Origin: Dermatophagoides farinae
Taxonomy: Eukaryota; Arthropoda; Arachnida; Sarcoptiformes; Pyroglyphidae
DNA length: 64,000 nt
Direction: 5' to 3'
Assembly: GCF_024713945.1 (NCBI RefSeq)
Contig: NC_134681.1
Span: 1,116,001 to 1,180,000, forward strand
The notes below the pieces were generated by a model. It was not told where the DNA came from, did not search any database, and was given only the letters and a program-made list of their open reading frames with translations. Position numbers and translations under genes: made by a program. Below, piece by piece: positions 23,797 to 34,033 of the stretch; the first letter of the stretch is position 1, and every line of letters begins with the position of its first letter.

Positions 23797-24368
23797 TGTA
23801 AGACTGGGCGGAAAGTTTCCTTACCAGAATTTTGCAACTAGGTCGAGTTGGTTGAGAATGATAATATTACTTACTATTTAGGCCACAAGAGTCGCGTTTT
23901 ATCCAGAATTTACTTGACTGAAGGTGATCACATTAAACGCAATCAAACTTAAATAAATGACACGTAACACACGTACTTTGACAAAAACAATTTTATTAAA
24001 AATGAATAAAGAAAAGAAATTTTGATTATTATTATGATGATGATTTTGGCGAATTTACGGATCCCAATGATCAATCTGTCCATGGTTTATATACGAAAGA
24101 AACAAGGAAATAAAATTTAGAAAAATGCAAAATTATAAAACAAAAGAAAAGAAAAATAAGAAAAGTAAGAGAAAGGAAAAATGATGAACTTTCGACCTGA
24201 GATAATCTATTTCCGCATTGACAAGATCTCAGAAAATCTTAATTAATTGATGTTAATTAATCACTTTCAACTTCAATCCACTTCCGCATTCGCCACTTCG
24301 ACCCAGATCAGATGACCCACAATAGCGAGTGATTAAAGAAAGTTAGGTGTGGATGCTTGGCCATTACA
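23797..24368 (-). repeat. 3' LTR of the retroelement
   Basis: 572 bp, bounded by TGTAATGG and CTTACA on the minus strand. It matches the 5' LTR along its length except for one base near 24280 (A here on the plus strand, G in the other copy). The final reading frame of the element stops inside it, at 24308. Confidence 0.95.
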
Positions 24369-25216
24369 TCCCCCCACTTTTTGTCGGAAATTAGGCCGGA
24401 AAGAACAGAAAGAAAGGAAAGGAATGGAAAAGATATGATTTGATATGTCTTACTTGCAACGAATGGATTGGTAACAATCTTATTTTCTTCATTTCGTACT
24501 TCAGTAGATTCATCAATTTTAATTAAAGATGTAGATATGTTCTTTTCAATATTAGTCATTTCTAATTTACGATATAGAACATATTCTTTCCATTCTTCTT
24601 TTATAGAATTCAACTTTTTCAATAAATAAATTAATTGAATAGAAATGATTAATCCAGTAATAAATGTTCCAATCATTTGAACAAAATCCATGATATTAAA
24701 TTTTGATTTTTCAGAAATTTCTTCAATCTTTTTCGTCAATAACTCTATTTCTTCCAAAATTTTCTGATTGATTTGTTGATTAATTTCATTTGATTCTTTG
24801 ATAAATAAAATAATTTGATTATTTTCATTTTCATCATTCAATGAATTTTCATCCATTTGATCATTTAAAATTCCACGTTTTAAACCAGTAGTACGAAACA
24901 ATTTTCGGCCATTACAAATTCGATTCTTTTTTTCACGATTAACATGATCATTAGATTTAATTTTAAAAATTGATTTCATAGTTGATGTTATATCAATATC
25001 TTTTGGATTCATTGTCGAAAATTTAAATATTGGTTGACCCAATTTTGGTTTCACTGTTGTTCGAAATGATTTCGATAAAGTTGTTCGGAATGGTTTTGAT
25101 GTAGTTCGAATTGATTTAGATGTTGTTATTTGGATTGGTTTCGATGTTGATTGAATTGGTTTCAATGATGTTTGGATTGGTTTCGATGATGTTTGGATTG
25201 ATTTCGATGTTGTCAA
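24308..25216 (-). CDS. Retroelement ORF3, distal part: Ser/Thr stalk, coiled coil, membrane segment
   Basis: This frame is open for about 300 codons and ends inside the 3' LTR. It starts with Thr/Ser/Lys/Pro repeats (about residues 1-57), has a heptad-like Glu/Ile/Leu-rich helix (about 143-170), then a hydrophobic segment (about 178-199, GTFITGLIISIQLIYLL) and a charged tail. It has no convincing start of its own. It overlaps the proximal part (25116-25991) in another frame, and both frames read through the same repeat. The likeliest reading is one protein whose frame changes near 25216-25240 by mutation, sequencing error or a recoding event. The whole would be a type I membrane protein with a mucin-like stalk. 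I recognise no homologue. Confidence 0.55.
   Translation of the reverse strand: MTTSKSIQTSSKPIQTSLKPIQSTSKPIQITTSKSIRTTSKPFRTTLSKSFRTTVKPKLGQPIFKFSTMNPKDIDITSTMKSIFKIKSNDHVNREKKNRICNGRKLFRTTGLKRGILNDQMDENSLNDENENNQIILFIKESNEINQQINQKILEEIELLTKKIEEISEKSKFNIMDFVQMIGTFITGLIISIQLIYLLKKLNSIKEEWKEYVLYRKLEMTNIEKNISTSLIKIDESTEVRNEENKIVTNPFVASKTYQIISFPFLSFLSVLSGLISDKKWGDVMAKHPHLTFFNHSLLWVI
24369..24382 (-). promoter_or_regulatory. Polypurine tract
   Basis: The minus strand reads AAAAAGTGGGGGGA directly before the TG of the 3' LTR. This is the expected position and composition of the plus-strand DNA primer of an LTR retroelement. It also lies inside the last open frame. Confidence 0.8.
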
Positions 25217-25991
25217 AACTGGCTTCAGGTGTTGTTGTTGATGTTGTTGTTGTCGATGTCAAGATTGATGTTATTGGATGATTAATTTTTGAAATGATCA
25301 CTTTTTCAGAATGTTTTGTTGAAATGATCGGTTCGACATTATTCCCAAGAATTGGTTTGTCTTCAATACATTCATAATCCACATCGTCATCATTTAAAAT
25401 TGACGTCTTAGACGCAGAAATAATTTTAGATGGAATCGATGAAGAATTATTTTTACGTTTCACAACTCGCAGATACAAAACATGATCATCACTAAAATAG
25501 CAACTTTCAATGACATTATCTCGAGTATCATTAAGTCGAAATATTTCACGCATAAATTCAGAATATAGCCATGGATTAGATTTAACAATACGAATCAATT
25601 TATCAATTAAATTTTTGAAATAGTTTTCAAATTGATTCATATCCTTGCCAATTCGTGATATAATTTGATAACGAATTTTACGATAAATTTCCAGTTCGGT
25701 TACACCTGAATCCAATTCAGAATTTTCACCCAATATTGTAATATATGATACCATTTGTTTTTCATTCAAAATTAATTTATCATCACAACGTTCTTGAAAA
25801 GTATTTATGATGCCAGTTTGAATTCTTTCTTCAATTTTAATTTGCATCCAAAAATTATTGATCAGGTCGGAATTAGAACCAATTGTATTCAAAATTTTAA
25901 ATTTTAAAATTATTGATTGACAATTTATGTTCACAGCCAATAACAACAATACCATAATGAGAGGAAATTTTCCCATTGTGAATATCTTCAT
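25116..25991 (-). CDS. Retroelement ORF3, proximal part: secreted/ectodomain-like protein
   Basis: Open on the minus strand between the env-like gene and the 3' LTR. Likely starts are Met codons at 25991 or 25976; the latter opens into a good signal peptide (MGKFPLIMVLLLLAVNINC). About 230 residues of folded-looking sequence follow with few Cys and two short acidic stretches, then a Thr/Ser run and Asn/Ile repeats to a stop at 25116. The end looks accidental: after the Thr/Ser run the neighbouring frame continues a Ser/Thr stalk and a membrane helix. It may be a second surface glycoprotein of the element, or a captured host gene. No family recognised. Confidence 0.5.
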   Translation of the reverse strand: MKIFTMGKFPLIMVLLLLAVNINCQSIILKFKILNTIGSNSDLINNFWMQIKIEERIQTGIINTFQERCDDKLILNEKQMVSYITILGENSELDSGVTELEIYRKIRYQIISRIGKDMNQFENYFKNLIDKLIRIVKSNPWLYSEFMREIFRLNDTRDNVIESCYFSDDHVLYLRVVKRKNNSSSIPSKIISASKTSILNDDDVDYECIEDKPILGNNVEPIISTKHSEKVIISKINHPITSILTSTTTTSTTTPEASFDNIEINPNIIETNPNIIETNSINIETNPNNNI

Positions 25992-26449
25992 GAATTCAAA
26001 AGAAATTACCGATATAGGTAAATATTCGTGATTTCCAAAATTCTTCACAAAACAAAACAAAAATTTTTCGTTGAAAAAAATTTCAATAATTTCCACGTGG
26101 TTTTCACACAATACTTGAAATGAGATGAGATGAGAGAGAGAGAGAGAGAGAGATCGTACGATGATCGTTGAATTTTCGTTGGAATTAGTAAGCATATCAC
26201 TCATGAAAGAAAGAAAGAGCGGGAAAAGGGGAGTAGGGGTATAAAATTATAGAGATTTGATTTAGACCACAAAGAAAGATAGAAAGTAAAAGAAAAATGA
26301 ATAGTGATCTAAATCGGTTCCCTAACTGAAATAGTATAAAACCCGACGGACTGTTCAAAGATACCGTAATCGCTTTTACACAAAAAAAAAAACAAATAAC
26401 AAATACATTAAACAAAAACAAATTAAATAATTACATCAATAATAAATTA

Positions 26450-27982
26450 TTATCTTCGTGTTGCAAGTTGGTAATGTTCCATTGCGACACGTCGATAATT
26501 TTGATGCGTAAAGTGTTGAATACAACATATAATAAACAAAAATATTGTTATTATTACAATAACAATAGTAACAATATAAAATAAATTCGAATGCAGAAAA
26601 TTATTTACAAGTTGTTCAACCAAGTGTTTTTCCTTTTCGACCATTGATGTTAAATCATGAAGATTCATTGATGAATTAAATGAATTGAACATTTTGATGA
26701 CAAGAATTTCATTCAATTCATCATGAAGGTTTTGCCAAGAATTGATTCTAATTGTTGGAAATGTTACCGTTTGACCATTAATCGTTAAATTTTGACCACG
26801 CTTCATACGATAAACTTGATTCTTACATGGAAACGTTGACCCATGAACCGTTATGTTTTGCATATAACAATAGAAATACACAAAACTATCATCACTTTTA
26901 ATCTGCACTATCTCCTCTGGAGTAATGAGATCCTTCTTCATACAACGGTAAGGTTTCCATGTAGCCTTTACATAATTAATATTCTCTTTGCAGTCAATCG
27001 AATGGAAGATTAATGGTGACTGGTAATCATTAATTGGATCGAACGTAATATCTCTTACACATTTTGATTCTTTGTTGATAACAGCATACTTGGGACCAGA
27101 ATATGTCGTAATACACAAATTATCCTTATTCGTCTGATCTGGAGCCACAATATGAAACGGATCAGCCCGAATAATATCATATTTTGGATCTATCTTCACC
27201 GTATTTACATTCAGCTGTAAGCGGCTATCCAATGGTGATTCCATAGATCTAAAATAACATTTCTCGAAATGCCACAAATCAGATGGACAATGTTCACAAA
27301 TTGAAATATTAGGGAACAATTGTTGAAATGATATTGGCAACGATGAATCAGCAATAAATGCTTCGTTGATAATTTGTTCAGCCTGAAGAAATCTGGCACT
27401 AAGTATAGATGTTAAGAAACGATTTTCAGAAACATGTTTAATTTGATCAATTTGATGTTGCATATTAATCAATTCATGAACCACTTTTTCATGAATCTGT
27501 TGGTCTAATTTTGAAATTTCTATCTCTGTCAATGAATGATCAGAGATCCCAATCTGGCTTTTGACATAAGAACCAAACATCACTGATGCTATGACGATGA
27601 TTGATGTAAACACTACACCAGACACAAATGACACAATATCACGTCGAGGTTTAGATGAACTTTGAAAAGGACCACACTTTTTATGCATCATTTCTTTTAC
27701 AAGCTTGTTGTATAACTTCTCACACGTTTCCTTTTCAAATTTATAGTTAAAACCATTTGAGATATTAGTTGGATTTAAAAACGACGATTTGATCACCTCA
27801 CATGGTGGTTTGAGATGAATGTCAATTTGTGCATTAACATAGTCGGTAGCAACACGATGTTTTGATCTTCTCCAAATTAACGGAAACACTGGCGAATTAA
27901 TCTGCGATTCTGAGAGGATGGGGAAAAATATAATGCTGATTAAATTAATACAGCAAAATATTTGATGGAGTTTTTTATACAT
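26450..27982 (-). CDS. env: Retroelement envelope-like glycoprotein, 510 aa, intact
   Basis: Starts at an ATG 139 bases after the gag-pol stop; stop TAA at 26450-26452. Layout: N-terminal hydrophobic signal (about residues 7-22); a dibasic site KPRR at about 111-114; a Gly/Val/Ile-rich hydrophobic segment right after it (about 116-138); a heptad-like helix (about 148-190); a Cys-rich middle with several N-glycosylation motifs; a membrane anchor near the C-terminus (about 460-485); and a short tail. Cleavage site, hydrophobic peptide, coiled coil and anchor is the plan of class I fusion proteins, as in errantivirus and baculovirus F-type envelopes. The sequence itself is not close enough for me to name a family. 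Expression would normally need a spliced subgenomic RNA; the junctions are not identified. Confidence 0.8.
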   Translation of the reverse strand: MYKKLHQIFCCINLISIIFFPILSESQINSPVFPLIWRRSKHRVATDYVNAQIDIHLKPPCEVIKSSFLNPTNISNGFNYKFEKETCEKLYNKLVKEMMHKKCGPFQSSSKPRRDIVSFVSGVVFTSIIVIASVMFGSYVKSQIGISDHSLTEIEISKLDQQIHEKVVHELINMQHQIDQIKHVSENRFLTSILSARFLQAEQIINEAFIADSSLPISFQQLFPNISICEHCPSDLWHFEKCYFRSMESPLDSRLQLNVNTVKIDPKYDIIRADPFHIVAPDQTNKDNLCITTYSGPKYAVINKESKCVRDITFDPINDYQSPLIFHSIDCKENINYVKATWKPYRCMKKDLITPEEIVQIKSDDSFVYFYCYMQNITVHGSTFPCKNQVYRMKRGQNLTINGQTVTFPTIRINSWQNLHDELNEILVIKMFNSFNSSMNLHDLTSMVEKEKHLVEQLVNNFLHSNLFYIVTIVIVIITIFLFIICCIQHFTHQNYRRVAMEHYQLATRR

Positions 27983-28120: not shown

Positions 28121-31100
28121 TTATGATGGCGAATAGCTGATTCGTGGACGACGTTGTCGTTGGGAACGTCGAGATAGAATCTGGTTAGAATTCAAAGTAG
28201 ATGCTGAAGATCTAAGTGGAATTACAGGAATTAAAGCTGATACAGAATTTCTTTCATTAAAATTCTCTTCCATCTCTGTTTGCTCTAACTGTAGGTCTTC
28301 TTCTTCTACATCTGATTCTTCAGTATCTAACACTTGTGCATTTGCCGGTTTAAGATTTTCTATGTGAACAATAGCTTCATGATTATCAACTGATATTCCA
28401 TATACTACAGAAGAATATCTTGTAATGATTTCAAATGGACCTTCATATCTAGGATCTAACTTTCTTCTATTTAATTCATCTGCAATTTTAGCAAATACCC
28501 AATCTCCTGGTTCAAACTGTTTATCAACTCTTCTTCGATCATAATATCTTTTATTACGATTATGATCTTGACATGATCGTTCATATGCCATCATTCTTGC
28601 TTCAATCAGATCCTCCCCAAGATAATATTCATCAGGATCTTCACCACTCATTAGAAAACTTGGAGCATACCGAGTAACAGTATGTATTGTTGAATTATAT
28701 TCAACCAAAGTTTCCATAGCAAGTCTTGCCCAAGATCGGTTTGGCATAGATAACTTTTTACACCTCAATCTTTCAACCACAGTTTGAACAAATCTTTCAA
28801 TCATTCCGTTACTAGAAGGATGTGTAACTGGAATATAAATTATTTGAGTATTATTTAGCAATAAGAATTCTCTAAAACTTGAGGAATTCAATGCAGGATA
28901 CCTATCACAAACAATATGTTGTGGATGTCCATCTTGAGAGATTTTATTATATAGTTGTTGAAAATCACTCACGTTTTGGGTTTTAGAAGTGATTCCCCAA
29001 ACGTATCTAGAAAATGAATCAATTGCCACATGAAAATATCTTAATTGAGAAAATGATTCTCTAAAACCTCCAATAGTATCAATATGAATGAATCTAAATG
29101 GTTCATCTGCCGGGCCAAGATGGTGAAGTAACCCCATCTTTTTCCTAGGCTTCTTTGCTTGTAAACAAATCTCACACTGTCTAATACAATTTTGAATAAA
29201 CCTGTTCTGATTAGAATTATAATATTTTTGTGAAAAATGAAGAGCTGTTTGTTTTTGACCAATATGTCCTTGTTCCTCATGATACCTCTTAACAATTTCA
29301 ATCGCTATATTATCAGGAAGATAATATCGTCTTCTACTACCCGTATATTTAACATAACAACCGTTAAATAATACACACCCTGGAGGGATAACCGGAATAT
29401 TGGCATGAATATCAGAAATCTCTTGAAGTGTAAGCAGATTTACTTCAAAATTAGGATTTCTAGAAAGAAAATCAGCTTCAACATTTTCACTACCAGGAAC
29501 ATATTCAATCTTAAAATTGTACTGGCTTAACCTTAATGCCCAATTTAAGATTCTAGTGTTGGGTTTTGAAATTGAATTGATGTACTTCAATGGTTTATGA
29601 TCAGTTCGAATTAAGAACTCTTTTCCATACAGATAATGATGCCAGTAAGCAATCGACTCAACAATTGCTAAGCATTCTTTTTCTGTGGCAGAATAGTTAA
29701 CTTGGTAAGGTAGTAATTTCCGTGAAAAATATCCCACAGTAACCATATCTTGATCATCATCTAATTCAGTATCTTTTTGTTTAAGGACAGCTCCAATACC
29801 AACATTAGAAGCATCTGTAATAAGAATTACAGCTTTTGATGGATCAAAGATGTGCAATACAAGATCAGATGATAGAACTTCAATTACTTTATTAAATGCT
29901 GTTTCAGCTAACGCTGTCCAATTGAAGGCCTGATCTTTCTTCAATAATTCATATAATGGTGTTAATAATTCCGTTTTATTTGGAATGAATCGTTGATAAA
30001 AACCAATTTTACCAAGAAACCTTCTAAGAGATTTAAGATCTTTAGGTGGAGGAAAATCGACAATTGCTTGTTTATTACTTTTAAGAGGTCTTATTGTATT
30101 GAACGATATTTGATGTCCTAAATAACAAACTTCTGGTAAACCAAATTTACATTTTGAAAGCTTCAAAATGATATTATTGTTTTTCAATACCAAAAATAAC
30201 TTTCCCAGATGTTCAACGTGCTCATTGAAATCTCTGGAAAACACAATTATATCATCTATATAATTATGAGCAAAATCCGTCAACTTATTATGTTTCAGGA
30301 TATTATACACTATTCTTTGAAAAATTGCTGGTGCATTCTTTAATCCAAAAGGCATGACATTCCACTCAAAGTGTTCCGTCATAGTAGAGAATGCAGTTTT
30401 ATGTTTATCACTTTCCTCTATTGGAATGTGATGAAAACCGGAAGCAATATCAAAGGTAGAAAAGACTGAGGAATTTAACATTCTATCCTCTATGTCTTGT
30501 ATTAATGGCATTGGATAACATTCAGTTATTGTTATATCATTCAACTTCCTAAAATCAACACAAAGACGTGTTTTCTTACCATCATCCTTTTTATCGACTA
30601 AAACCACCGGAAAAGAATAATTCGAAGTAGATGGTCTGATCAATTCTTTCTCAAGTAAAACCTTGATTTGATCATCAACCTTTTTCTGATCTACCGGAGA
30701 TATACGGTAGGGTCTTAAATTGATTGGTACTTCATTCACCAAGTTAATTCGGCAGGTGTCTATGCTAATTGAACCAATTTCACCAGAATTAGTGAATACC
30801 ATATTAAATTTTAAAATCAATTTTTTTAATGGATCATCAATTTGAGATAAATCATGTAATTCTATTACATTAGCAGAAGGAGATCTTGGAATTGTTCTAA
30901 TCATATCTATTGGAACTACTCTATTTTCCAATAATTGATTTATTTTACCTCCAGGAATTCTCATTAATTTGAATCGATCAATGAGATCTAACCCAATAAT
31001 AATGTAATGAGCTTGAGGTAAGATATAAAATTGATGCTCCTCTGAAAGCTGACCAATCTTAGTTCTTAAGATTGCCTTTCCCATCAATGATGTCCATGTT

Positions 31101-33079
31101 ACCGCTTGTCTAACTAGATTATCACAAGGTTCAGGAGTAATTTGTAAAACATCACAAATATCACAGCTAATAAAAGAATGTGTTGCACCAGTATCATATA
31201 ACCCTTCAAATTCTTTACCGTTCAATGTAATCTTAATCTTTTCTATCATAGTTGGAGTAGAAACCATCATGTTAGTAATTGGGTTGGTATTATTATCCCT
31301 AGTATAACAAATGGATGTATTATGCCTACCATTACAAGTTCTACAAGTAAAAGTATTCCTACATTCATTTATCATATGAGCCATAGAAAAACATCTCAAG
31401 CATCTTTTTAAACTATTTAGAATCCTAATCTTTTCTCTACTAGGTCTGGGGCATTGAGTTGGAATATGATTTCCTTTACAGAAAAAACATTGTTTAACAC
31501 CAGTTGTACCAGCTGAGGATTGATTAGTTCTATTATTATTATTATAATTATTAGATGTTGAAGGGGTGTTATAAGTTATACTTGGTAATTGACTATTTGG
31601 ATAAGTAATAGCCGGTAATGCTTGTCTAGTTTGTGCTCTATTACTAAACCTATTCCTGTTCTGAAATAATGTCCTTCTGAACGGATTTGGTTGATTGTAA
31701 CTATTCCTATTTGGAACATTTCTAGTTCTAACAAATGTTTCCTGTTTGGGCCTATTCAAATTCATCATGCTATCTGTTCGACATAAAATAATTCTTTGCT
31801 GTTCAGACTGCTCTATATATGAATTTAAGTCATTCAAATACTTGCTAATGGTTAGATCTGAACCAAATCTTTGCATAATATTTGTAACTGCACCGTCAGG
31901 GAATTTCGCTGCTATAGTATAAAAGAAGTCAGTTTCTAGAAATGACCTATTGTTACCACTGGTTGCTAATGTGTTATACACATCTTTTATCACAGCAAGA
32001 TTGCTGCGCATGATATCCGTTTGATGCCAATGTTCTGCTCTAGGCAACGCTTCTACCTTGGATTTCAACTTCTGTTGTAATGGAAATGAAGCTGAATAGT
32101 ATCTAGTTAAAATATTATACGCCTGATGATATTGTGGGCCATCGATTCCAGCTATTAGTCCAAGAGAGAAAGGATCTAGTTTCTCTCTTAACAGCAATAA
32201 TTTGCCCGCATCTTCAGCATCAGTTTGATGTATAAACTGATTGAATGCGTTGATGAAAGTATGAAAGTTTTCAAACTTACCATCAAATTTTTGGACTTTA
32301 TCTGCCCATTTCATATTAAAAGATTTTCTAAAAACTGGTTCCATACCTGGTCTAACAAATTCAGACTGTGTCTGACCAGATGTTGATGGAAATGTATAAC
32401 CAGATGTAAATGGATTGATAGTCGAATGGACTATTGGAATCTCATGATTATTAGAAAACGTAACACCTGGTTGTTCAGGGAATTTGAAATCTAATTTCTT
32501 AATCACCTTTGGTGTCATAAAATCTAAAATATTGGGAGATGAAAATAATCTAGAAACGGATGGTCTAGCAGAATCATCTATCGTAAATGGCGCAGTAATT
32601 GGTGTTTTAATCATATCCGAGTGAGTAGTTCTTACAGTAGATGTAAAAACTGTAGTAATCGGATCCGTTAATTCTGGGTTTTCTCCAAAATGACTTGGTG
32701 ATACTGACCTAGTCAAAGGAATAGAGGTAACCCGAGTACCGTCATCATCAGCGGTCCTTATCGGTACTGAGAAAGATCTTTTAACAGATCTAGACTCTAG
32801 ATTAGAAACTAAATCTGCTATAATATGCAAACAGGAGGTGGCCAATTCACGTTTTGGGAGACCCGACTTTCCTTCTTTCTCCCATTTCTCAACTTGTGCC
32901 ATGGTGTCGACAATCATGACACGAAACTCTTTCAGTTGGACATACACCTGCTGCATACGACCGCTGTCCAGTTCTCCAGCGATCTCTTTCTGCAATTCCG
33001 ATAAGGCTGTGAATACGTAGTCAACCTTCGCCTTGGCAGTCTTAATAAGATCACGAGTCGATGATCTTGTTGTGGCCAT
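28121..33079 (-). CDS. gag-pol: Retroelement Gag-Pol polyprotein, 1652 aa, single open frame
   Basis: Order by residue: Gag capsid-like region (about 255-435, similar in layout to the DUF1759 Gag of BEL/Pao elements); three CxxCx3Hx4C-type knuckles (about 531-591), the third of form CRTCNGRHNTSIC; aspartic protease with DTG at about 629-631; reverse transcriptase with YIDD at about 940-943; RNase H (ITDAS about 1087, TDHKP about 1159); integrase with an HHCC finger (about 1267-1305) and catalytic D1334, D1392, E1428, the last pair 35 residues apart; a GPF motif near 1547. Protease-RT-RNase H-integrase is the Ty3/gypsy order. Gag and Pol are fused in one frame without frameshift or stop, so protein ratio must be set after translation. 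No disabling change seen; likely active until recently. Confidence 0.95.
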   Translation of the reverse strand: MATTRSSTRDLIKTAKAKVDYVFTALSELQKEIAGELDSGRMQQVYVQLKEFRVMIVDTMAQVEKWEKEGKSGLPKRELATSCLHIIADLVSNLESRSVKRSFSVPIRTADDDGTRVTSIPLTRSVSPSHFGENPELTDPITTVFTSTVRTTHSDMIKTPITAPFTIDDSARPSVSRLFSSPNILDFMTPKVIKKLDFKFPEQPGVTFSNNHEIPIVHSTINPFTSGYTFPSTSGQTQSEFVRPGMEPVFRKSFNMKWADKVQKFDGKFENFHTFINAFNQFIHQTDAEDAGKLLLLREKLDPFSLGLIAGIDGPQYHQAYNILTRYYSASFPLQQKLKSKVEALPRAEHWHQTDIMRSNLAVIKDVYNTLATSGNNRSFLETDFFYTIAAKFPDGAVTNIMQRFGSDLTISKYLNDLNSYIEQSEQQRIILCRTDSMMNLNRPKQETFVRTRNVPNRNSYNQPNPFRRTLFQNRNRFSNRAQTRQALPAITYPNSQLPSITYNTPSTSNNYNNNNRTNQSSAGTTGVKQCFFCKGNHIPTQCPRPSREKIRILNSLKRCLRCFSMAHMINECRNTFTCRTCNGRHNTSICYTRDNNTNPITNMMVSTPTMIEKIKITLNGKEFEGLYDTGATHSFISCDICDVLQITPEPCDNLVRQAVTWTSLMGKAILRTKIGQLSEEHQFYILPQAHYIIIGLDLIDRFKLMRIPGGKINQLLENRVVPIDMIRTIPRSPSANVIELHDLSQIDDPLKKLILKFNMVFTNSGEIGSISIDTCRINLVNEVPINLRPYRISPVDQKKVDDQIKVLLEKELIRPSTSNYSFPVVLVDKKDDGKKTRLCVDFRKLNDITITECYPMPLIQDIEDRMLNSSVFSTFDIASGFHHIPIEESDKHKTAFSTMTEHFEWNVMPFGLKNAPAIFQRIVYNILKHNKLTDFAHNYIDDIIVFSRDFNEHVEHLGKLFLVLKNNNIILKLSKCKFGLPEVCYLGHQISFNTIRPLKSNKQAIVDFPPPKDLKSLRRFLGKIGFYQRFIPNKTELLTPLYELLKKDQAFNWTALAETAFNKVIEVLSSDLVLHIFDPSKAVILITDASNVGIGAVLKQKDTELDDDQDMVTVGYFSRKLLPYQVNYSATEKECLAIVESIAYWHHYLYGKEFLIRTDHKPLKYINSISKPNTRILNWALRLSQYNFKIEYVPGSENVEADFLSRNPNFEVNLLTLQEISDIHANIPVIPPGCVLFNGCYVKYTGSRRRYYLPDNIAIEIVKRYHEEQGHIGQKQTALHFSQKYYNSNQNRFIQNCIRQCEICLQAKKPRKKMGLLHHLGPADEPFRFIHIDTIGGFRESFSQLRYFHVAIDSFSRYVWGITSKTQNVSDFQQLYNKISQDGHPQHIVCDRYPALNSSSFREFLLLNNTQIIYIPVTHPSSNGMIERFVQTVVERLRCKKLSMPNRSWARLAMETLVEYNSTIHTVTRYAPSFLMSGEDPDEYYLGEDLIEARMMAYERSCQDHNRNKRYYDRRRVDKQFEPGDWVFAKIADELNRRKLDPRYEGPFEIITRYSSVVYGISVDNHEAIVHIENLKPANAQVLDTEESDVEEEDLQLEQTEMEENFNERNSVSALIPVIPLRSSASTLNSNQILSRRSQRQRRPRISYSPS

Positions 33080-33384
33080 TTTGGAATAAATAATAATAAA
33101 AGAAACTAAATTTAAATAATAAGACTTACCAAGTGAAGTTTTATGGCGTCAGAATAAATAATAATTGGACTCGAAAAATACAATACACGTGTATAAAATA
33201 AACCACAGTAAATGGTCTTGACGCTATGTTTGAATGATTAATGTGTGTTGCAATATTTGGAGTTAACGTTGATATAGCAACAGCTCACAAAGAAAATACT
33301 GGAAAAACGTTCGTCTTTTAAGTATTATTACTTCTCAGACAACAGAATAAGATCCAAATAGAAATTAGACTTATCCTGTTGGCT

Positions 33385-33956
33385 TGTAAGACTGGGCGGA
33401 AAGTTTCCTTACCAGAATTTTGCAACTAGGTCGAGTTGGTTGAGAATGATAATATTACTTACTATTTAGGCCACAAGAGTCGCGTTTTATCCAGAATTTA
33501 CTTGACTGAAGGTGATCACATTAAACGCAATCAAACTTAAATAAATGACACGTAACACACGTACTTTGACAAAAACAATTTTATTAAAAATGAATAAAGA
33601 AAAGAAATTTTGATTATTATTATGATGATGATTTTGGCGAATTTACGGATCCCAATGATCAATCTGTCCATGGTTTATATACGAAAGAAACAAGGAAATA
33701 AAATTTAGAAAAATGCAAAATTATAAAACAAAAGAAAAGAAAAATAAGAAAAGTAAGAGAAAGGAAAAATGATGAACTTTCGACCTGAGATAATCTATTT
33801 CCGCATTGACAAGATCTCAGAAAATCTTAATTAATTGATGTTAATTAATCACTTTCAACTTCAATCCACTTCCGCGTTCGCCACTTCGACCCAGATCAGA
33901 TGACCCACAATAGCGAGTGATTAAAGAAAGTTAGGTGTGGATGCTTGGCCATTACA
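33385..33956 (-). repeat. 5' LTR of the retroelement
   Basis: 572 bp. On the minus strand it carries a TATA box (TATATAAA at 33681-33674) and, about 95 bases later, AATAAA at 33585-33580. This places U3, R and U5 in the expected order and gives the element its own promoter and poly(A) signal. A leader of about 305 bases separates it from the gag ATG. Confidence 0.95.
33674..33681 (-). promoter_or_regulatory. TATA box in the 5' LTR
   Basis: TATATAAA on the minus strand, 276 bases into the LTR. Transcription would start about 30 bases downstream, before the AATAAA at 33585. The same motif exists in the 3' LTR, where it could drive transcription into flanking host DNA toward lower coordinates. 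Confidence 0.6.
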
Positions 33957-34033
33957 TATATATGGAATGTAGTTATTGTTATATAATCAAACCGGCTGGG
34001 TCGATAAGTTTGTCTCTGCATATATCGATATGC

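What the first reader, a model, noticed from the sequence alone, without database searches (positions are those of the whole stretch)
24308..25991. Third coding region between env and 3' LTR: possible second glycoprotein
Beyond gag-pol and env the element has about 1.6 kb of further coding potential: a signal peptide, an ectodomain-like stretch, a Ser/Thr/Pro stalk, a coiled coil, a membrane helix and a tail that crosses the polypurine tract and ends in the LTR. Gypsy-type elements usually have only gag, pol and env. Two membrane-protein genes would be unusual and could mean an attachment protein separate from the fusion protein, or a captured host gene.
Basis: partly seen in the sequence, partly recalled or inferred. 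Interest (0 to 1): 0.8.

Follow-up and report, generated by a model that had tools for sequence, protein, structure and literature searches.

The report
Mite retroelement with second membrane-protein gene
A retrovirus-like element in a dust-mite genome carries, after its envelope gene, what looks like a real and conserved extra gene for a second membrane protein, matching no known family found here, that may act at the particle or cell surface.

Summary
A Ty3/Gypsy-type provirus lies on the minus strand (LTRs 33957-33385 and 24369-23797, identical at 572 of 573 positions). After gag-pol and env it has a third coding region, 25976-24308: signal peptide, ectodomain, Thr/Ser/Lys/Pro stalk, helix, membrane helix and a tail running through the polypurine tract into the 3' LTR. 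In this assembly it is two overlapping frames (362 and 302 aa). A deposited Dermatophagoides farinae gene model reads nearly all of it as one 527-aa protein, so the break belongs to this copy or assembly.

Relatives were found at six other places in the genome. Two share the order env, third gene, polypurine tract, LTR; a third keeps it in truncated form. All 13 codon comparisons give dN/dS below 1 (0.12-0.65). Against the best copy, divergence follows codon position (p about 1e-7); four non-coding controls do not. Thirteen of 16 env stretches examined showed no trace of the region.

No relative was found in Pfam, PDB sequences, viral contigs or, beyond D. farinae, the protein database. Env itself looks F-like. 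I think the product is a type I surface protein working with Env, possibly in attachment; function is inferred, not shown.

The parts
33385..33957 (-). 5' LTR (TG...CA; 33957 itself is one base outside the TG)
   Evidence: 572 of 573 positions identical to the 3' copy; termini and TA-rich flanks
33124..33129 (-). candidate splice donor GTAAGT in the leader, just before gag
   Evidence: sequence; present in copy L053, whose leader aligns at 79%; use not tested
28121..33079 (-). gag-pol, one ORF of 1652 aa
   Evidence: Pfam: protease, RVT_1, RT_RNaseH, Integrase_H2C2, rve, in that order
26450..27982 (-). env, 510 aa: signal peptide, RR cleavage-like motif, hydrophobic segment, coiled-coil-like stretch, membrane helix
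   Evidence: model resembles paramyxovirus F; an 87% identical full-length relative exists
26271..26405 (.). conserved non-coding block between env and the third gene
   Evidence: 74-76% identical to L051 and L052, aligned, no codon periodicity; role unknown (splice acceptor or promoter?)
25116..25976 (-). third gene, first frame: signal peptide, ectodomain (3 NxS/T sites), start of stalk
   Evidence: relatives L051, L052, L056, L057
24308..25216 (-). third gene, second frame: stalk, basic conserved motif, helix/coiled-coil-like stretch, membrane helix, tail
   Evidence: relatives L051, L052, L053, L058
24370..24382 (-). polypurine tract, read through by the third gene
   Evidence: aligned with L051 and L052 (one difference) and with L053 (2-base insertion)
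23797..24369 (-). 3' LTR; the second frame ends inside it

Best explanation
The element is an env-carrying Ty3/Gypsy retroelement (errantivirus-like) of a Dermatophagoides mite with a genuine extra gene. Shown by computation: the region is coding, recurs in other copies in the same place, and its protein has been under purifying selection. Strongly suggested by sequence: the product enters the secretory pathway by a signal peptide, carries an N-glycosylatable ectodomain on an extended Thr/Ser/Lys/Pro stalk, and is held by one membrane helix with the C-terminus inside (type I). Inferred: it is made from a spliced subgenomic RNA using the GTAAGT donor before gag, reaches the same membrane as the F-like Env, and supplies a surface function that Env does not, most likely binding to target cells or helping Env act, while Env does the fusion.
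For: No comparable open frames in 1000 shuffles. Relatives at six other places in the genome. L051 and L052 are colinear from env through the third gene, PPT and LTR; L053 keeps the order with a deletion. dN/dS below 1 in 13 of 13 aligned stretches (0.12-0.65; nested and near-duplicate rows included). Divergence from L053 concentrates at third codon positions (22/8/48 differences, p=1.3e-7), against 4 non-coding control rows with p 0.14-0.87; first frame against L057 31/19/53, p=1.7e-4. The N-terminal hydrophobic segment and ectodomain recur in L057 at 41% identity. Env has an F-type layout and its model has paramyxovirus F at the top of both fold lists. The donor is kept in L053.
Against: No transcript, protein or binding data. 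Three of the five codon-position tests were not significant (L056 0.57, L051 0.74, L058 0.28); L058 gave 0.056, L056 0.32, L057 no row. The relatives are decayed, and L051/L052 share stop codons, so they are not independent. The structure model has mean pLDDT 37 and says nothing about the fold. The searches found one long copy of the region in this genome, and its frame is broken in this assembly. Long open frames also occur outside the element (28 of 167 windows). Passages of PMC12992720 describe F-type Env as the third ORF of insect elements and the words 'additional ORF' do not occur there, so such a partner is probably not needed in general.
Confidence: 0.4

Rival explanations
1. A membrane accessory protein acting in the producing cell, not in entry: for example removing the receptor, blocking superinfection, aiding egress or countering mite RNAi.
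For: Its 3' place and its reading through the PPT into the LTR recall accessory genes such as nef and sag (recalled, no call). No hydrophobic fusion-peptide-like segment follows its basic motif (sequence). House dust mites are reported to silence transposons by a rewired, siRNA-based pathway (PMC5805368 and PMC5886382, titles and abstract starts in listing).
Against: Signal peptide and long glycosylatable stalked ectodomain are more than such a role needs; no match to any accessory family.
Confidence: 0.3
2. A factor for direct cell-to-cell transfer, comparable in role to the sORF2 proteins of Drosophila MDG1-group elements.
For: Precedent that LTR retrotransposons of this kind carry extra membrane proteins for transmission (PMC11952523, abstract and sections 7 and 8).
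Against: sORF2 is about 70 aa, encoded upstream of gag and serves env-less elements; here the deposited protein is 527 aa, lies after env, and the env frame is open over 510 aa.
Confidence: 0.1
3. A captured host or other-virus gene that now serves the element (origin, compatible with any role above).
For: No resemblance to Env; of 16 env stretches examined only 3 have it.
Against: No relative outside the element family seen in the own genome, none in Pfam or PDB sequences.
Confidence: 0.15
4. Fortuitous open frames or a decaying remnant with no protein function.
For: Frame broken in this copy; other copies decayed; 3 of 5 codon tests not significant; long open frames are not rare in the window.
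Against: Shuffles, codon-position pattern with clean controls, deposited uninterrupted gene model.
Confidence: 0.05

Closest known systems
Insect errantiviruses (gypsy, ZAM and kin; Metaviridae)
   Same: LTR, gag-pol, F-like env, TA-rich target, spliced env (target and splicing recalled)
   Different: Described with env as the third ORF (PMC12992720 passages); here a second membrane-protein gene follows env. Env here gives no Baculo_F Pfam match
Bdelloid rotifer LTR elements with varied ORF3 (PMC5408684; abstract and passages)
   Same: Extra 3' ORFs, some with membrane helices and coiled coils; one lineage has a paramyxovirus-type F
   Different: In the abstract and passages I saw one ORF3 type per element, and no F-type env together with a second membrane gene
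Drosophila MDG1-group sORF2 (PMC11952523; abstract, sections 7 and 8)
   Same: Extra membrane protein of an LTR retrotransposon
   Different: About 70 aa, before gag, env-less elements, FAST-like layout
Paramyxovirus F plus attachment protein
   Same: F-type fusogen with a second glycoprotein (works-like, hypothetical)
   Different: Attachment proteins are type II (PMC3347325, abstract start); this reads as type I, with no detected homology
Retroviral sag/nef-type genes (recalled)
   Same: 3' position overlapping PPT and LTR
   Different: No homology found; signal-peptide, long-stalk type I layout

Membership tests
Ty3/Gypsy (Metaviridae) LTR retroelement | LTR pair with TG...CA ends, PPT | tested here: met
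Ty3/Gypsy (Metaviridae) LTR retroelement | pol order protease-RT-RNase H-integrase | tested here: met
Errantivirus-like: F-type Env | signal peptide, basic cleavage motif, hydrophobic segment, membrane helix, conserved Cys | tested here: met
   read from the five-sequence alignment A4
Errantivirus-like: F-type Env | F fold / Baculo_F profile | tested here: inconclusive
Paramyxovirus-type attachment protein | type II membrane topology | tested here: not met
   hydropathy: N-terminal signal peptide, membrane helix in the C-terminal part
Paramyxovirus-type attachment protein | receptor-binding head fold | tested here: inconclusive
   model pLDDT 37, no fold search made with it; no PDB sequence match
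FAST-like sORF2 | small protein (about 70-200 aa) | tested here: not met
   527-aa gene model with signal peptide
Second copy of Env | homology to Env | tested here: not met
   hhalign probability 1%, 26 columns only
Captured host gene | host relative outside the element | tested here: inconclusive
   none at E<=0.001 in own genome; other mite genomes not searchable here

The most novel reading that the evidence does not exclude
A Ty3/Gypsy retroelement with a two-glycoprotein entry system: an F-type fusogen plus a separate type I attachment protein of unknown origin, convergent with the F-plus-attachment-protein division of labour in paramyxoviruses.
Probability: 0.25. Interest if true: 0.85.

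Novelty: new variant of a known kind. Interest (0 to 1): 0.6.

Why it matters
How F-type Env proteins of invertebrate retroelements find their target cells is, as far as I know, poorly understood. A conserved second surface protein beside an F-like Env would be a direct handle on that question, and would show that an invertebrate retroelement can divide attachment and fusion between two genes. Even in another role, it is a conserved protein with no relative found, in a mite reported to control transposons by a rewired RNAi pathway (title of PMC5805368).

Tried and rejected
Structure of the third protein: AF2 on five sequences gave pLDDT 37, so no fold search was made with it. Homology to Env: rejected. 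Viral contigs: six pattern matches, none a relative. Pfam on both frames, P0001 and L057: best E 0.03, all below the curated cut-offs. PDB sequences: two matches at E 0.94 and 0.95. Env against PDB by sequence: two at E 0.32 and 0.51. Programmed frameshift between the two frames: considered and set aside, because two deposited proteins (P0001, P0003) run on without a break. An antisense gene starting from the conserved block: no plus-strand ORF of 80 aa or more is listed there. Absence from other species: not claimed. The searches found only D. farinae entries, but env itself gave only two hits, both from unnamed contigs, so the database covers such elements poorly. Two multi-row alignments misplaced fragments and were not used for structure.

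Print: ten paper searches. Among the titles and abstract starts listed, which are capped lists, I saw none on this element or on a Ty3/Gypsy element with F-type Env and a second glycoprotein gene; only open-licence PMC papers are held. Passages also seen in PMC12440569 (Troyka, no envelope), PMC13172572 and PMC5805368 (no occurrence of gypsy, LTR or envelope in the text).

Full report
Setting. The window is G000:C5:1116001-1180000 of a 62.4-Mb, 22-contig assembly. The third region matches two deposited Dermatophagoides farinae proteins at 100% and 99% (P0001, P0002), so the host is D. farinae or very close. The element lies on the minus strand: LTRs 33957-33385 and 24369-23797, 572 of 573 positions identical, hence a young insertion; the flanks are TA-rich, so the target duplication cannot be delimited. 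Gag-pol is a single 1652-aa ORF with protease, RT, RNase H and integrase in Ty3/Gypsy order. Env is a 510-aa ORF.

The third region. Minus-strand frames 26204-25116 and 25216-24308 overlap by 101 bases in different frames. From the signal-peptide Met at 25976 the first gives 286 aa with three NxS/T sites; the second holds the stalk, a basic motif, a helix, the membrane helix (hydropathy 2.06) and the tail. Signal peptide and coiled coil are read from sequence and hydropathy; no dedicated predictor was run. Of 1000 shuffles of 24308-26204 none reached 302 open codons. As a caution, 28 of 167 windows of the same length outside the element also hold an open frame of 302 or more (presumably host genes and simple repeats); the case therefore rests on conservation.

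The frame break. D. farinae protein P0001 (527 aa) contains both parts without a break: 272 of 274 residues identical to the second frame, the two exceptions being its first and last aligned residues (the first a TTG read as Met by the tool), and identical to the first frame up to the junction. P0003 runs across the same junction. Uninterrupted sequences thus exist; the break is particular to this copy or assembly. P0001 ends before the PPT, so it does not support the last 28 residues of the second frame.

Other copies. Own-genome searches gave 5 places for the first frame and 9 for the second, the query itself, its 5' LTR and overlapping rows included (the tool calls such counts lower bounds). 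They reduce to six loci besides the window: L051, L052, L053, L056, L057, L058. I took 19 stretches: 16 around env hits, covering 21 of the 25 hits (one more is the window's own, three are a mirror-image copy on C6), and 3 around third-gene hits. Of the 16 env stretches, 3 hold the third region (L051, L052, L053). L051 and L052 (97.6% alike over 3434 columns, different flanks, shared stops) have env, third gene, PPT and LTR in the same order; L053 keeps the start of env, the C-terminal half of the third gene and parts of the LTR. L057 starts with this family's LTR edge and then carries a signal peptide and ectodomain 41% identical to the window's. L056 and L058 are fragments. The other 13 env stretches gave no tblastn match to the region; in two pairs, what follows env is short: L044 and L045 share only 231 bases after the env stop and L040 and L041 about 360.

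Selection. Of 13 aligned stretches, all have dN/dS below 1, from 0.12 to 0.65 (nested and near-duplicate rows included, simple counting method, synonymous differences often high, no likelihood test). By codon position, L053 (28/14/55, three stretches summed, p=1.5e-6) and L057 (31/19/53, p=1.7e-4) are significant; L056 (0.57), L051 (0.74) and L058 (0.28) are not. At DNA level L053 gives 22/8/48, p=1.3e-7, L058 p=0.056, L056 p=0.32 and L057 no row, while four non-coding control rows (leader, LTR twice, env-third gene spacer) give p 0.14 to 0.87. Constraint is therefore clear for the helix, membrane and tail part, and supported for the signal peptide and ectodomain. From the PPT-LTR junction the frame stays open for 20 codons in the window and 22 in L051, L052 and L057, but this part is also constrained as PPT and LTR.

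The third protein has no relative that I could find: Pfam, PDB sequences, viral contigs, protein database (only D. farinae entries). It is not an Env duplicate by profile comparison. Its fold could not be predicted (pLDDT 37).

How it likely works. A GTAAGT donor before gag is kept in L053, which fits spliced RNAs for env and the third gene; acceptors are not established. The layout suggests a type I surface protein with a stalked ectodomain. Beside an F-like Env the simplest role is a surface partner, possibly attachment; accessory roles in the producing cell are nearly as likely. I put being a real, selected membrane-protein gene at about 0.9, and the surface-partner mechanism at 0.4.

Known and new. 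Extra ORFs in LTR elements are known: bdelloid rotifers (PMC5408684; abstract and passages) and the sORF2 membrane proteins of Drosophila MDG1-group elements (PMC11952523; abstract and two sections). F-type Env of insect elements is described as the third ORF (PMC12992720; passages). A second, larger membrane-protein gene after an F-like env did not turn up in the listings of my ten searches. I rate it a new variant of a known kind.

Noticed in passing
window 26271-26405: Non-coding block between env and third gene, 74-76% conserved in L051/L052, with pyrimidine-rich tracts nearby on the minus strand and a TATAAAA-like motif on the plus strand; splice acceptor or antisense promoter are possible.
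   Followed up: partly
L044 and L045 (G000:C3:2715000 and 4780000): Two copies identical over 2207 bases in which env continues an open frame from a pol part without a stop; no third gene seen.
   Followed up: no
L040 and L041 (G000:C7:2782 and 2882 kb): A 479-codon open env-type frame in L040 and a 90-99% identical relative in L041 that is interrupted by other sequence; could be a young element or a retained env.
   Followed up: no
L053 (G000:C9:405700-411700): Third gene, one LTR, then leader and gag start: two element bodies share one LTR, with U3 partly deleted.
   Followed up: partly
L057:4531-5380: Family LTR edge joined to the signal-peptide/ectodomain part and then an integrase fragment: a rearranged copy.
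   Followed up: partly
G000:C6:4349840-4352176 and 4370072-4372408: Env fragments in mirror-image order, suggesting an inverted duplication.
   Followed up: no
P0005: Full-length Env 87% identical, 10 member sequences, from unnamed contigs: a close relative lives in some other sampled source.
   Followed up: no
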